Shown here in pieces: positions 25,261 to 47,287 of a stretch of 64,000 nt of DNA (within the stretch, counting starts at the first letter, position 1; every line of letters starts with the position of its first letter). Made by a program: the position numbers and the translations under genes. Source of the stretch: Saxidomus purpurata (taxonomy: Eukaryota; Mollusca; Bivalvia; Venerida; Veneridae); the NCBI GenBank assembly GCA_022818135.1, contig JAFMSR010000003.1, positions 12,454,861 through 12,518,860 on the forward strand, read 5' to 3'. A model generated the notes under the pieces. That model worked only from the letters and a program-made list of their open reading frames with translations. It did not search any database and was not told where the DNA came from.

Positions 25261-25263
<3 letters not shown>

Positions 25264-26125
25264 ACTTTTGATAGTATTCAAGATATTTGACTTTATAAAA
25301 TCTTTTACCAAAAATTCTAAGTTAAAAAGGGATATAAATCTGTCAAAAATCAAAACAGAGTTATGGGGATTGTTTCCTCAGGTGTAGATGTTGATGGTAA
25401 ACATATATTTTGAGTTTCAAGTCAATACCTTTGATAGTAGTCAAGATATTTGAATTTACAAAAAAAAAATACCAAAAATTCTAAGTTAAAAAGGGGCATA
25501 AATCTGTCAAAAATCAAAACAGAGTTATGTGAATTGTTTCCTCATCTGTATATGTTGATGGTAGACACATACTTTGAGTTTCAAGTCAATACCTTTGATA
25601 GTATTCAAGATATTTGAATTTAAAAAAAACTTTAACCAAAAATTCTAAGTTAAAAAGGGGCATAAATCTGTCAAAAATCAAAACAGAGTTATGGGTATTG
25701 TTTCCTCAGGTGTAGATGTTGATGGTAGACACATACTTTGAGTTTCAAGTCAATACCTTTGATATTATTCAAGATATTTGAATTTATAAAAACATTTAAC
25801 CAAAAATTCTAAGTTAAAAAGGGGCATAAATCTGTCAAAAATCAAAACAGAGGTATGGGGATTGTTTCCCCAGGTGTAGATGTTGATGGTAGACACATAC
25901 TTTGAGTTTCAAGTCAATACCTTTGATAGTATTCAAGATATTTGAATTTATAAAAAACTTTAACCAAAAATTCTAAGTTAAAAAGGGGCATAAATCTGTC
26001 AAAAATCAAAACAGAGGTATGGGGATTGTTTCCCCAGGTGTAGATGTTGATGGTAAACATATAGTTTGAGTTTCAAGTCAATACCTTTGATAGTATTCAA
26101 GATATTTGAATTTATAAAAAACTTT

Positions 26126-26179
26126 AACCAACGCAGACGCCGACGCCGACGCCGACGCCGACACCGACGCCGACGCCGA

Positions 26180-26218
<39 letters not shown>
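26126..26218. repeat. GACGCC/GACACC hexanucleotide array
   Basis: About fifteen GACGCC or GACACC hexamers near the right end of copy C. Shorter versions occur at 22505-22552 and 36258-36295, always just inside the right terminus of this element type. They give arginine-rich reading frames on both strands, which are not genes. Confidence 0.9.
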
Positions 26219-33957: not shown

Positions 33958-36261
33958 AACAAGAGCACCGCCTGCGGGTGCCAGACGCTCGTCTGATTTT
34001 TATCCTTTAAAGTTTATTTATCACCATTTTTTAAGTAATAGTGTCCTTGACCTTGACCCCAGAACACAATCCCACAAAATGTTTCAAAATTATAACTAGA
34101 CACTAAGTTTGGTCACAATAATTCAATTGCAACTAAAGATATTGTTTTTTTCCCATTTTTCTATTTTTAGAAAAAAAAGCCGGACTTTGACCCCATGAGC
34201 CCCATACACAATCCCAATTAATTTAAAAGTCTTTATTCATATGTATTACTCACTTAATAATTTAGTTACATTATGTCAATTGTAACTTAAGATATTGGAC
34301 ATATTACTGTTGTTTTTTTTTCTATTTTTAGCTAATGTCCTTGACAATGACCCCAGGAGCCCCAAAAGCCAACCCTATCTTCTTAAATACTTACGACAAG
34401 CAAAAGTTGGTTACATTATGTCAACTGTAACTAAAGATATTGAATATATTACAGTTTTCCTATTTTTAGTAACAGTGACCTTGACCCCATGAGCCCTAAA
34501 ATACAATCCAATTAAAGATACATTGTATTCATAGATACTTCTTATACACTAAGTTTGGTTGCATTATGTTCACTGTTACAAAAATAGTGTGTGTGTGAAA
34601 CTTTTCAAGTTAAGAAGCGGCAATAATCCAGCCAAATACATTACAGAGTTATGTAACTTGTAAAAACCTTCCTTTATTCTATTGTACATTTAATAGTGAA
34701 CAGGTATTCCAAGTTTGAAAGTGATAGCCTTGATAGTTTGCATGTAAGTGACCCAAATGCAAAACTTAACAAGAGCTGTCACATGACAGCACGCTCGACT
34801 ATTCGAAAGCTTGTTGGTAAAATGGGGTTTTTGTCTAAGAACAGGAGTATTGTGTAATTGTCTATAAGAATTAAGGTCAAAGATATGAAACTTGTTCAAA
34901 GACCTTTGTAAATGTACATTGCATTCAAGGCCTTACTCTGGATTCTGCAAGCCAACTGGAGGGAGGATGGGGGGATAATTTCAAAGAAATACATGACCTT
35001 GTATATTTGATCATGAATAATTTTGTAACTTTTCAAAATTGATATGTATAGAATTAAAAAAGCATAACCGCTTCATGCTGCATAATTATTCTATGACATT
35101 TCAAAAGAAAGCCATTTTGAGTATTTCCATTTTAGTCTGGAAAAACTGTGACAAAATTCTAAGTTAAAAAGGGCATAAATATGTCAAAAATCAAAAACAT
35201 TGGTGAAGATGTTGACAGTAAATACGTTCGATAGTATTCTATCTTTAACAAAACATTCAAAGTTAAAAAGGGACACAAATCTATCAAAAATCAAAACAGA
35301 GTTATGGGGATTGTTTCCTCAGGTGTAGATGTTGATGGTAAACATATATTTTGATGGTAAACATATATTTTGAGTTTCAAGTCAATACCTTATATAGTAT
35401 TCAAGATATTTGAATTTACAAAAAAAAAATACCAAAACTTCTAAGTTAAAAAGGGGCATAAATCTGTCAAAAATCAAAACAGAGTTATGGGAATTGTTTC
35501 CTCAGGTGTATAATGTTGATGGTAGACACATACTTTGAGTTTCAAGTCAATACCTTATATAGTATTCAAGATATTTGAATTTACAAAAAAAAAATACCAA
35601 AACTTCTAAGTTAAAAAGGGACACAAATCTATCAAAAATCAAAACAGAGTTATGGGAATTGTTTCCTCAGGTGTATATGTTGATGGTAGACACATACTTC
35701 GAGTTTCAAGTCAATACCTTTGATAGTATTCAAGATATTTGAATTTAAAAAAAACTTTAACCAAAAATTCTAAGTTAAAAAGAGGCATCAATCTGTCAAA
35801 AATCAAAACAGAGTTATGGGGATTGTTTCCTCAGGTGTAGATGTTGATGGTAGACACATACTTTGAGTTTCAAGTCAATACCTTTGATAGTATTCAAGAT
35901 ATTTGAATTTATAAAAAACTTTAACCAAAAATTCTAAGTTAAAAAGGGGCATAAATCTGTCAAAAATCAAAACAGAGTTATGGGGATTGTTTTCTCAGGT
36001 GAAGATGTTGATGGTAGACACATACTTTGAGTTTCAAGTCAATACCTTTGATAGTATTCAAGATATTTGAATTTATAAAAAAACTTTAACCAAAATTTCT
36101 AAGTTAAAAAGGGGCATAAATCTGTCAAAAATCAAAACAGAGTTATGGGGATTGTTTCCTCAGGTGAAGATGTTGATGGTAAACATATAGTTTGAGTTTC
36201 AAGTCAATACCTTTGATAGTATTCAAGATATTTGACTTTATGAAAAACTTTAACCAACGCA

Positions 36262-36296
<35 letters not shown>

Positions 36297-37665: not shown

Positions 37666-38277
37666 TGACATGTGTAATATTATACCCTATCAAACATTAA
37701 CCTGCTTCTCGAACAAGTTAAATTCTGCCTATAAAAAAATCAAAGCACTGAAAGTCCTGCAGCAACTTGGCTCGCTGCTGAGTACTGGACATTTGAGCAT
37801 ATGCAGTAATGATAAACTGAAGAAACATTCAAGCAAGATGCAAGTCCTGGTTCAAACATACTCAACATACAACTTTCAGGTTTGAATATAGTTTACAGTT
37901 TGTGAATAAACCCCATCAGATTTCAATAGTTTTGAACTCTTATATTATGTACGTTCAAACTACGACAGCGCGCATGCGCATAGGTTTTCACTGTCAATAT
38001 GAGCACACACGAAGGCTGAGCAAAAAGTTTGTGGGATTTTGCAATAACCTTTTTATTTGACGCTCTATAACTTTCATTTTCCTATAACTAATTGTCGCCA
38101 GCTTTCACCATCTCATGTATCACATGACCCCATTCTAGACCTAAGTTGTTTCACACAAAAAAAAACCGCAAAGGGTACACACTTTTTAAAAATTCAGTTT
38201 TCGAGCAAACATTTTTGTCTCCATTTTGGCAGGGACTGTAAATGAATGACTTTTGACTTCAATGTCACTTCACAAAA
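37666..38277. other. Unassigned; M-type repeat at 38080-38250
   Basis: 37666-38060 shows nothing I recognise. From 38080 the sequence CATGACCCCATTCTAGACCT, AAGTTGTTTCAC and TTTGGCAGGGACTGTAAATG matches repeats at 39230-39320 and 42580-43570. Confidence 0.45.
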
Positions 38278-39145
38278 ATATCTCCTTAAATGGAGGAGAT
38301 ATCTTTTAAATATTCAGAAATATCTATGTAAATTAGGAGGTATCTTTCATTTATTTGTGATATCTGTCATGTTTTGAAAGATATCTCACAATACTAAAGA
38401 GACATTTCTCGATGAAATAGAGATATCTCTCTACCATACAGAAATATCTGTCCACCATAAAAAGAAAGCACTGAAAAAGAAATATCTGTTGAAATAGAAA
38501 GATATCTCTTTAACTTAGAGATATATCTCTGTAACTTTGAGAGATATCGCTCAAAAATAAAAATACAGCACTCAAATGATGTTCAAAGTTACTTTTGTAA
38601 GTAGAAGAGATATCTCTTAAAGTTGATGAAATATCTTTGGTGATACAAATATATCTCTCAGTGTGAAAGAGATATATCTATAAAAATTAAGGAAATCTGT
38701 TTGAAAATAGAGATATTTCTTTTACCATTTAATCAAAAAAGATATATCTGATTTCATAGAGATATCTCCTAAAATAGGGGATATATCTCTTAAATTCAGA
38801 GATATCTTTGTAAATCAGGAGATAAGTTTCTTTTAATAGAGATATCTTTCATGTTTTGAAACGTATCTCCAGATTCTAAAGAGATATCTTTCAATGAAAG
38901 AGACATATCTACCGTACAGAGATATCCCTCCTGCATGAAAAGATATCTCTTGAAAGAATATCTGTTTTAAACAGAAATTAATCTTAAACTTAGAGAGATA
39001 TCTCTGTCACTGAGAGATATCTGTCAAAAATGGAAGGATATCTTTCAAATGATGTTGAATCGGTATCTTTGTTTGAAGAAGAGATATCTCGTAAAGTTCA
39101 GGAAATATCTCTCTGTGATACAAATACATCTTTCAAGTTTAGATA
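38278..39145. repeat. GATATC-core array with 20-21 bp period and ~482-bp higher-order copy
   Basis: Cores of GATATC or one-base variants, often extended to AGAGATATCTCT, recur with the final C at 38303, 38324, 38344, 38364, 38385, 38427, 38448, 38486, 38506, 38527 and 38548. The step is 19-21 bp, or a multiple of it where a core has decayed. CATGTTTTGAAA at 38368 recurs at 38850, so the array is two diverged halves of about 482 bp. No coding frame fits. Confidence 0.9.
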
Positions 39146-39845
39146 CTGACCAAGTAGTTAGTCCGGTAGACACCTCTCGATTTTCATGGATATACAAATT
39201 TATTTATTCTCGAAAGAATGTCGCAAAACAAAAACAATGATGTACCACATGTTCCCATTCTAGACCCAAGTTGTTTCACCCCGAAAAAAAAACAACAAAA
39301 GCGTATATCCTCTTGAAAAATTAACTTTGGTAAGATGCTTTATGGATATTGCCCATGAAATTTAACTTACCCCTGAATGTATGTTTGTATGATTTTACTG
39401 GAATTTAGTATTTAATCAATATAGTAGGCATACCCAAAAGCAAGCAATCGGCAGTCTTTTGCTTATATATGAATACAATTGCAAGCTCTCTTTATTGATT
39501 TATTTTGACTTTGAAACTTTTGAAACTACATGTACATGTATCTTGTAAGTCTTCAAAAAGTCTAGAATGTCCCATTTTACCATAATTTATTTGGACAGTG
39601 AATAGTAGTTTACATTCACTTTAACAAGTCTAGGAAATACGCAAATTTATGGACAGTTTATAGTAGACCATCTTAGAATTAAAATACCTTATAGAATTAT
39701 GATAAGACAATTCTTGAAAAGTGCTTAAATGTACAAAACGGAAATGGAAACGAATATAACCGTTCCACTGTTCCCATTTTAATGACAGTAAAATGAAATG
39801 TGATTTTTTCAAAAATTTAAAACAAACTTTGACGTCCAAAGTTAA
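39146..39845. other. M-type repeat fragment, then unassigned AT-rich DNA
   Basis: 39235-39320 carries CCCATTCTAGACCCAAGTTG and AAATTAACTTTGG, an M-type fragment. 39330-39845 shows no gene or repeat that I can place. Confidence 0.4.
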
Positions 39846-46552: not shown

Positions 46553-47287
46553 TGCGCTTAGTCAATATCACATACATTATGGCCATAGATTTGATAATTC
46601 ACCTGCTTAGTCAATATCACATACATCAGGGCCATAGATTTGATAATTCACCTGTAAATATCACATACATCAGGGCCATAGAAGATAATTCACCTGCTTA
46701 GTCAATATCACATACATCAGGGCCATAGATTTGATAATTCATCTGCTTAGTCAATATCACATACATCAGGGCCATAGATTTGATAATTCACCTGCTTAGT
46801 CAATATCACATACATCAGGGCCATAGATTTGATAATTCACCTGCTTAGTCAGTATCACATACATCAGGGCCATAGATTTGATTATTCGCCTGCTTAGTCA
46901 GTATCACATACATCAGGGCCATAGATTGATAATTCGCCTGCTTAGTCAATATCACATACATCAGGGCCATAGATTTGATAATTCACCTGCTTAGTCAATA
47001 TCACATACATCAGGGCCATAGATTTGATTATTCACCTGCTTAGTCAGTATCACATACATCAGGGCCATAGATTTGATAATTCGCCTGCTTAGTCAATATC
47101 ACATACATCAGGGCCATAGATTTGATAATTCACCTGCTTAGTCAATATCACATACATCAGGGCCATAGATTTGATAATTCACCTGCTTAGTCAATATCAC
47201 ATACATCAGGGCCATAGATTTGATAATTCACCTGCTTAGTCAATATCAGATACATCAGGGCCATAGATCCGAAAATTCACCTGATTG
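46553..47287. repeat. 49-bp minisatellite, about 15 units, beside the CAPS2-like 3' end
   Basis: The unit CTTAGTCAATATCACATACA plus TCAGGGCCATAGATTTGATA plus ATTCACCTG is repeated with few changes; one unit lacks the CTTAGT part (near 46650). It starts about 60 bp beyond the stop codon of the minus-strand gene, so it could be part of the 3' untranslated region. Confidence 0.93.

What the first reader, a model, noticed from the sequence alone, without database searches (positions are those of the whole stretch)
38278..39145. Array of GATATC palindromic cores spaced by two helical turns
Across about 870 bp, GATATC or near variants, often AGAGATATCTCT, recur every 19-21 bp although the bases between cores are poorly conserved. 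The spacing is about two turns of B-DNA, so all cores face the same side of the helix. The array is itself duplicated at ~482 bp. Retention of the core and phase but not the linkers is unlike an ordinary decaying minisatellite. A phased protein-binding platform or a curved-DNA segment is possible. This is inference.
Basis: partly seen in the sequence, partly recalled or inferred. Interest (0 to 1): 0.75.

Follow-up and report, generated by a model that had tools for sequence, protein, structure and literature searches.

The report
Decayed mobile element built of palindromes
The array is a worn double copy of a small non-coding transposable element that is scattered through this genome, and its evenly spaced palindromes look like something the ancestral element needed in order to spread, not a working protein platform at this spot.

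Summary
It is a decayed tandem dimer of a dispersed, non-coding DNA transposon. A strict core pattern occurs 2,371 times in the host genome against 0 for the reversed control. Copies of the family end in ~24-bp inverted repeats, TAT[C/G]GCAAGCCA[A/T]TTTACTATTTA, with TA..TA termini and 6-bp target duplications. This is the published terminal signature of IS3EU elements (PMC10045372, passages). Between copies the linkers are nearly as conserved as the cores. In co-duplicated copies octamers changed at 113/1871 sites, linkers plus ends at 136/2431 and flanks at 1199/19166 (sums). Resident arrays, this one included, therefore look neutral. Face-of-helix phase and bending are not unusual here. One striking fact survives one level up: in the family consensus 23 of 23 subunits carry an invariant AGATATCT, while linkers agree only 37% (chance 29%). 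Constraint, if real, acted on the mobile progenitor. My best guess is an array of binding sites for the transposase, or for a host factor. No transposase of this family was identified, so the mechanism is inferred. This is a new variant of a known kind.

The parts
38269..38723 (+). Unit A of the element (family positions 47-504); its outer terminus is missing
   Evidence: BLAST of family consensus, 85% identity; alignment
38721..38734 (+). Fusion point: remnant of the terminal inverted repeat (TTTACCATTTAATC) at the start of unit B
   Evidence: Read; alignment to family positions 11-24; a like fusion seen in six other loci
38721..39135 (+). Unit B of the element (family positions 11-439); truncated at its right end
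   Evidence: BLAST of family consensus, 86% identity; alignment
38277..39130 (.). Array of AGATATCT-type cores, mostly 19-21 bp apart; 13 of 42 aligned octamers still intact (counted by eye)

Best explanation
The feature is a degraded dimer of a non-autonomous DNA transposon (MITE-like) with IS3EU-type termini. Shown: a dispersed family, inverted repeat ends, 6-bp target duplications, an interior made of 23 ordered ~21-bp subunits, near-neutral decay of resident copies, and an invariant AGATATCT in every subunit of the family consensus. Inferred: while the element was mobile, each palindrome was a site for a dimeric DNA-binding protein, most likely the transposase that mobilised it in trans, possibly a host factor. 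An array spanning the element then helped synapsis of the ends by avidity, so that copies with broken sites left fewer descendants. After insertion the array has no use and decays, as here. I put about 0.93 on the transposon identity, about 0.75 on progenitor-level constraint and about 0.45 on transposase binding as its cause.
For: Dispersal: 2,371 strict core pairs against 0 reversed; 1,551 first-look candidates, 40 scored; 636 TIR sites with at most 1 mismatch against 1 control. Homology to the window stops at the array ends. TSD: exact 6 bp at 5 of 8 independent sites, 5/6 at 2 more, none at 1 (read by eye). TA..TA termini and usual 6-bp TSD are stated for IS3EU (PMC10045372, passages). Of 60 exact TIR sites fetched (of 100 listed), 41 run into an array. 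Consensus: AGATATCT 23/23, linker identity 0.37 against 0.29 by chance. A separate consensus from 16 loci fetched by TIR alone (but kept only if they matched the family consensus) covers 16 of the 23 octamers, all AGATATCT. Near-neutral decay. Shared variants (at least 15% of 84 aligned copies): 5 in 184 octamer columns against 23 in 196 linker columns, while singletons are 139 against 125 (p 0.0005). Precedent: piggyBac-type transposase dimers bind palindromes, and arrays of sites are thought to aid synapsis (PMC11707139, passages); Galileo's internal repeats hold extra transposase sites (cited in PMC4079207, passages).
Against: No transposase of this family was found. Of 6 intact rva_4 copies sampled, 0 had the TIR or an array within 900 bp downstream; one of them was partly masked. 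The one rva_4 remnant noticed beside an array (L012) has no matching left end, array or TSD, even with 2.2 kb more upstream. The shared-variant test weakens to p 0.12 when poorly matching segments are dropped, p 0.16 in the set with identity at least 85% and length at least 300, and p 0.055 at a 20% threshold. At G and C positions the octamers are more variable between copies than linkers (0.35-0.38 against 0.30-0.31), the reverse of A and T. The window copy lacks recognisable outer ends and a TSD.
Confidence: 0.6

Rival explanations
1. The same transposon, but the cores were kept alike by a mutational process: during element replication the palindromes of different subunits pair and template-switch, so that only the self-complementary cores are homogenised.
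For: Palindromy ends at the core: just outside it only 6-10 of 23 positions pair. A stem-loop mechanism at inverted repeats or palindromes is a proposed route to tandem repeats in MITEs (PMC8268682, passage).
Against: No homogenisation is seen in resident copies: octamers diverge at 6.0%, linkers plus ends at 5.6% (sums). It would have to act only during transposition.
Confidence: 0.2
2. The palindromes serve a host DNA-binding protein (enhancer, nucleosome or chromatin signal) that raised the element's success.
For: A perfect dyad octamer is a typical homodimer site (inference). The family consensus bends more than shuffles (64.7 against 46.3, p 0.005, with recalled wedge values).
Against: No factor is known here and no expression data are at hand. 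Phase at 10.5 bp is not above the null.
Confidence: 0.2
3. A phased protein-binding platform or curved-DNA segment functioning at this locus.
For: Local spacing of about 19-21 bp.
Against: Cores are not better kept than linkers in this copy or in co-duplicated copies; phase and bend are ordinary; 13 of 42 octamers are intact.
Confidence: 0.03
4. A plain young or randomly decaying 20-bp minisatellite.
For: Autocorrelation at 21 bp.
Against: Dispersed copies with shared linker order, TIRs and TSDs; octamers 100% and linkers 37% alike within the consensus.
Confidence: 0.03

Closest known systems
IS3EU/GingerRoot DNA transposons (non-autonomous families)
   Same: TA..TA termini, terminal inverted repeats, 6-bp TSDs (PMC10045372 passages)
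   Different: No IS3EU transposase tied to these ends. I saw no report of an interior made of phased palindromes in the listings and passages.
Foldback-type elements (Drosophila FB, Galileo, Tetris)
   Same: Inverted ends with internal short tandem repeats; units in opposite orientation in L012, L026 and L027. Galileo repeats hold extra transposase sites (cited in PMC4079207, passages).
   Different: Subunits here are ~21 bp around an invariant palindrome; units are mostly direct or single (of the array loci only L028 shows self-inverted arrays over 100 bp at its threshold); the TSD is 6 bp.
piggyBat/piggyBac transposon ends
   Same: Palindromes near the end bound by transposase dimers, several sites per end (PMC11707139 passages)
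   Different: A few sites per end, unrelated sequence; TTAA target (recalled).
Bivalve satellite-like arrays carried by Helentrons (pearl type) and the oyster satellitome
   Same: Short tandem arrays scattered by mobile elements (PMC7492417 listing only; PMC8268682 listing and passages)
   Different: Helentrons lack TIRs and TSDs (recalled); this family has both.

Membership tests
IS3EU/GingerRoot superfamily | TA..TA termini | tested here: met
   TAT[C/G]GCAAGCC..GGCTTGC[G/C]ATA in most two-ended copies; the IS3EU statement is from PMC10045372 (passages)
IS3EU/GingerRoot superfamily | TSD usually 6 bp | tested here: met
   5 of 8 independent sites exact (one after a one-base shift), 2 of 8 with one mismatch, 1 of 8 none; co-duplicated loci counted once; L025, a co-duplicate of L011, matches at only 3 of 6
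IS3EU/GingerRoot superfamily | IS3EU-type DDE transposase in an autonomous partner with the same ends | tested here: inconclusive
   rva_4 is present in the genome (151 matches; its link with IS3EU is recalled). One remnant lies beside an array (L012). 0 of 6 sampled intact copies carry the TIR. The search for relatives of the L012 remnant did not complete.
Foldback elements | Long inverted repeats made of short tandem subrepeats | tested here: inconclusive
   Opposite-orientation units in L012, L026 and L027; L028 arrays self-inverted; the window's dimer is direct
Helentron/pearl elements | No TIR and no TSD (definition recalled) | tested here: not met
   TIRs and 6-bp TSDs present
Ordinary minisatellite | All positions of the unit about equally alike between subunits | tested here: not met
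   Octamer 1.00, outer core 0.73, linker 0.37 in the family consensus

The most novel reading that the evidence does not exclude
A transposon whose whole body, and not just its ends, is a selected array of 23 dyad binding sites at about two-turn spacing. Mobility itself purged broken sites in the source lineage, while the many dead copies now record the neutral control for that selection.
Probability: 0.45. Interest if true: 0.6.

Novelty: new variant of a known kind. Interest (0 to 1): 0.42.

Why it matters
It replaces a locus-level story (a phased platform) with a family-level one, and it makes a clean test possible: constraint on mobile lineages against neutral decay of resident copies within one non-coding element. 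If the sites bind the transposase, the family would be an unusually complete natural record of how many sites, at what spacing, a transposase of this type needs.

Tried and rejected
Rejected: phased platform or curvature at this locus; plain minisatellite; RNA gene (no Rfam match at the gathering threshold, no tRNA). The core-pair pattern is absent from the viral collection and met in 3 stretches of the prokaryotic one. A TA-only TSD was considered first and dropped when 6-bp duplications appeared. An empty-site search with the joined flanks of L025 found no empty site among the 40 scored of 239 candidates: the right flank is itself a repeat that abuts the TIR. The autonomous partner was sought by TIRs without an array (19 of the 60 read; one followed 2 kb inward, L119, no second TIR within 7 mismatches) and by rva_4 without success. 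Papers: searches listed no paper that I recognised as describing this element. They covered only the held open-access library, and I saw listings and, for four papers, passages; no whole paper.

Limits of the counts: the consensus used 44 unit copies after leaving out most near-duplicates (L035/L042 and L023/L025 both stayed) and segments under 300 bp or 74% identity. The 84-row set dropped those of the loci L059-L118 that bear the two recurring flanks and further co-duplicates, and took segments of at least 180 bp and 74% identity. TIR sites read were 60 of the 100 listed, of 636 counted. Loci came from pattern, homology and TIR searches, so they favour better-kept copies. The pairs are not all independent (L011/L023/L025 and L013/L014/L015 are trios), and single pairs vary: octamer 5.6% against linker 3.3% in L045/L051, 0 of 57 against 3 of 100 in L013/L015; in four pairs or more flanks changed more than both.

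Full report
Observation. GATATC is strongly clustered: 17 of the window's 23 exact sites lie in 38298-39088. The array autocorrelates at 21 bp (0.47) and 482 bp (0.44), against about 0.30 expected from composition. Tandem Repeats Finder sees only short fragments of it. The self-match is 38269-38660 against 38753-39135, 77% identical.

It is a dispersed family. The window lies in a 1.135-Gb assembly. The strict pattern AGAGATATCTCT-N5-12-GATATC has 2,371 matches there and none for the reversed control. By my count the first 100 listed matches fall in 53 clusters on contig C1. A similar pattern is met in 0 stretches of the viral collection and 3 stretches of the prokaryotic genome collection. 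A homology search had 1,551 first-look candidates, of which 40 were scored; the best relatives are 70-80% identical. Homology to the window starts near 38269 or 38721 and ends near 38724 or 39135, and the window's flanks next to the array are not shared with the loci compared. Some other loci share flanks with each other (see below).

Anatomy. A complete copy such as L056 (about 530 bp) has one end close to TATGGCAAGCCAATTTACTATTTAATC and, at the other, the inverse of TATCGCAAGCCATTTTACTATTTATTCC. Of 8 independent insertion sites with both ends, 5 have an exact 6-bp duplication: TGAGTG (L035/L042), ATTTTG (L045/L051), ATGTTT (L056), CGAAAC (L034, outer left end at 1267) and GAGCGA (L028, allowing one base at the TIR end). 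Two have 5 of 6 (L043/L044, with a one-base shift, and L011), and one has none (L012). L025, a co-duplicated copy of L011, has 3 of 6. All were read by eye. TA..TA termini and usual 6-bp TSDs are what PMC10045372 states for IS3EU families (passages). The TIR with at most 1 mismatch occurs 636 times (control 1). Of 60 exact TIR sites read (of 100 listed), 41 have at least 4 cores within about 350 bp and 19 do not.

The window copy is a direct dimer. Unit A covers family positions 47-504 and unit B 11-439; the outer ends are gone, and no similarity to the missing ends exceeds shuffles. The fusion point (38721-38734) keeps an inner TIR remnant, and a like fusion occurs in L019, L028, L034, L037, L046 and L047. 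The ~482-bp duplication is therefore probably an inherited dimer form (inference).

Cores against linkers between copies. In 44 aligned unit copies, mean pairwise difference is 0.230 at GATATC, 0.202 at the outer core and 0.228 at linkers plus ends. With inner linkers only it is 0.246, against 0.209 for the octamer AGATATCT, a ratio of 0.83 (95% CI 0.73-0.95). By base, A and T of the octamer vary less than in linkers (0.155-0.159 against 0.205-0.239), G and C more (0.351-0.378 against 0.296-0.309). In the 84-row set the non-major fraction is 0.106 against 0.145. Cores are thus modestly, not strikingly, less variable. In the window, linkers plus ends are 88% and 90% identical to the consensus, and GATATC cores 84% and 88%. 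In nine pairs of copies that share flanks, summing, octamers differ at 113/1871 (6.0%), outer cores at 48/932 (5.2%), linkers plus TIR at 136/2431 (5.6%) and flanks at 1199/19166 (6.3%). Resident arrays decay much like their surroundings. Only 565 of 1,491 octamers in the 84 rows are intact.

Cores against linkers within the ancestor. The family consensus has 23 cores spaced 22, 21, 19, 20, 20, 21 (x5), 17, 21 (x4), 25, 21 (x5) and 22 bp. All 23 carry AGATATCT; the 15 linkers of exactly nine bases (of 22) are all distinct and agree at 0.37 against 0.29 by chance. A consensus from 16 loci fetched by TIR alone covers 16 of the 23 octamers, and all are AGATATCT; those loci were kept only if they matched the family consensus, so the check is not fully blind. 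A minisatellite that decays at random should not give this, so something kept the cores while the source element's linkers changed. A site-frequency comparison agrees in part. Variants shared by at least 15% of copies are 5 in 184 octamer columns and 23 in 196 linker columns, while singletons are 139 and 125 (p 0.0005). It holds at a 10% threshold (p 0.0015) and in the sets with identity at least 85% (p 0.0045) and few gaps (p 0.0005). With poorly matching segments dropped it is p 0.12, with identity at least 85% and length at least 300 it is p 0.16, and at a 20% threshold it is p 0.055. I call it suggestive.

Phase and bend. Local spacing is mostly 19-21 bp, but the phase at 10.5 bp is not above a null of random 17-25 bp gaps: R 0.38, p 0.08 for the consensus; R 0.23, p 0.24 for the window. 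With recalled wedge values the window array is not unusually bent (p 0.125; 12 of 73 window segments bend as much or more), while the consensus is more bent than its shuffles (p 0.005). Regular spacing alone does not need selection: a tandem origin gives it and indels are rare (inference).

Mechanism. Palindromes bound by transposase dimers, and arrays of sites that aid synapsis through avidity, are described for piggyBac-type and other elements (PMC11707139, passages). Galileo's internal repeats hold extra transposase sites (cited in PMC4079207, passages). By analogy the AGATATCT array was most likely a multi-site handle for the mobilising protein. The main rivals are a host factor, or palindrome-limited homogenisation during replication.

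Partner. rva_4 (PF24764; its link with IS3EU is recalled) has 151 matches in the genome. One broken remnant (L012 1746-2186, E 1.4e-12) lies about 500 bp before an array ending in a TIR. No left TIR, left array or matching TSD is found, even with 2.2 kb more upstream, and that array has two ends of one type, so it may be an independent insertion. Six intact rva_4 copies show neither TIR nor array in 900 bp downstream, one of them partly masked. The partner is unresolved.

Verdict. The sequence observation is correct in outline, the reading 'cores retained, linkers lost' is wrong for this copy, and the feature is a relic of a mobile element. The surviving question, why an ancestral transposon kept 23 perfect palindromes, is testable.

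Noticed in passing
window 38115-38200 and 39240-39328: An 80% identical ~85-bp direct repeat flanks the array on both sides, 1125 bp apart; perhaps a host repeat split by, or duplicated around, the insertion. Its genome copy number could not be checked.
   Followed up: partly
L011, L023, L025 (and flanks of L060, L061, L065, L082, L089, L093, L107, L111, L114): A ~2-2.5 kb repeat carries the array element inside it and abuts its TIR (239 first-look candidates for the flank, 40 scored); by eye it has inverted ends near ACGTACTTCGG / CCGAAGTACG.
   Followed up: partly
flanks of L074, L075, L077, L086, L100, L101, L108, L109 and more diverged ones: A second recurring flank (close to GACGTAGACGTTTTTCTTA) beside the TIR: perhaps another host repeat that co-amplified the element.
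   Followed up: no
window 25261-26214 and 35351-36296: Tandem ~164-bp repeats followed by an (ACGCCG)n microsatellite, at two places; resembles bivalve pearl/Helentron-like elements (recalled).
   Followed up: no
window 46556-47283 and 1270-2417: A 15-copy 49-bp array (94% matches) and a ~41-bp array with higher-order units.
   Followed up: no
L012 751-2492: Broken rva_4 integrase-type transposase remnant just before a GATATC array with a TIR end.
   Followed up: partly
family consensus: 4 of the 5 shared variants inside octamers are G-to-T or C-to-A changes, consistent with ATAT-to-ATATAT slippage that makes GATATATC.
   Followed up: no
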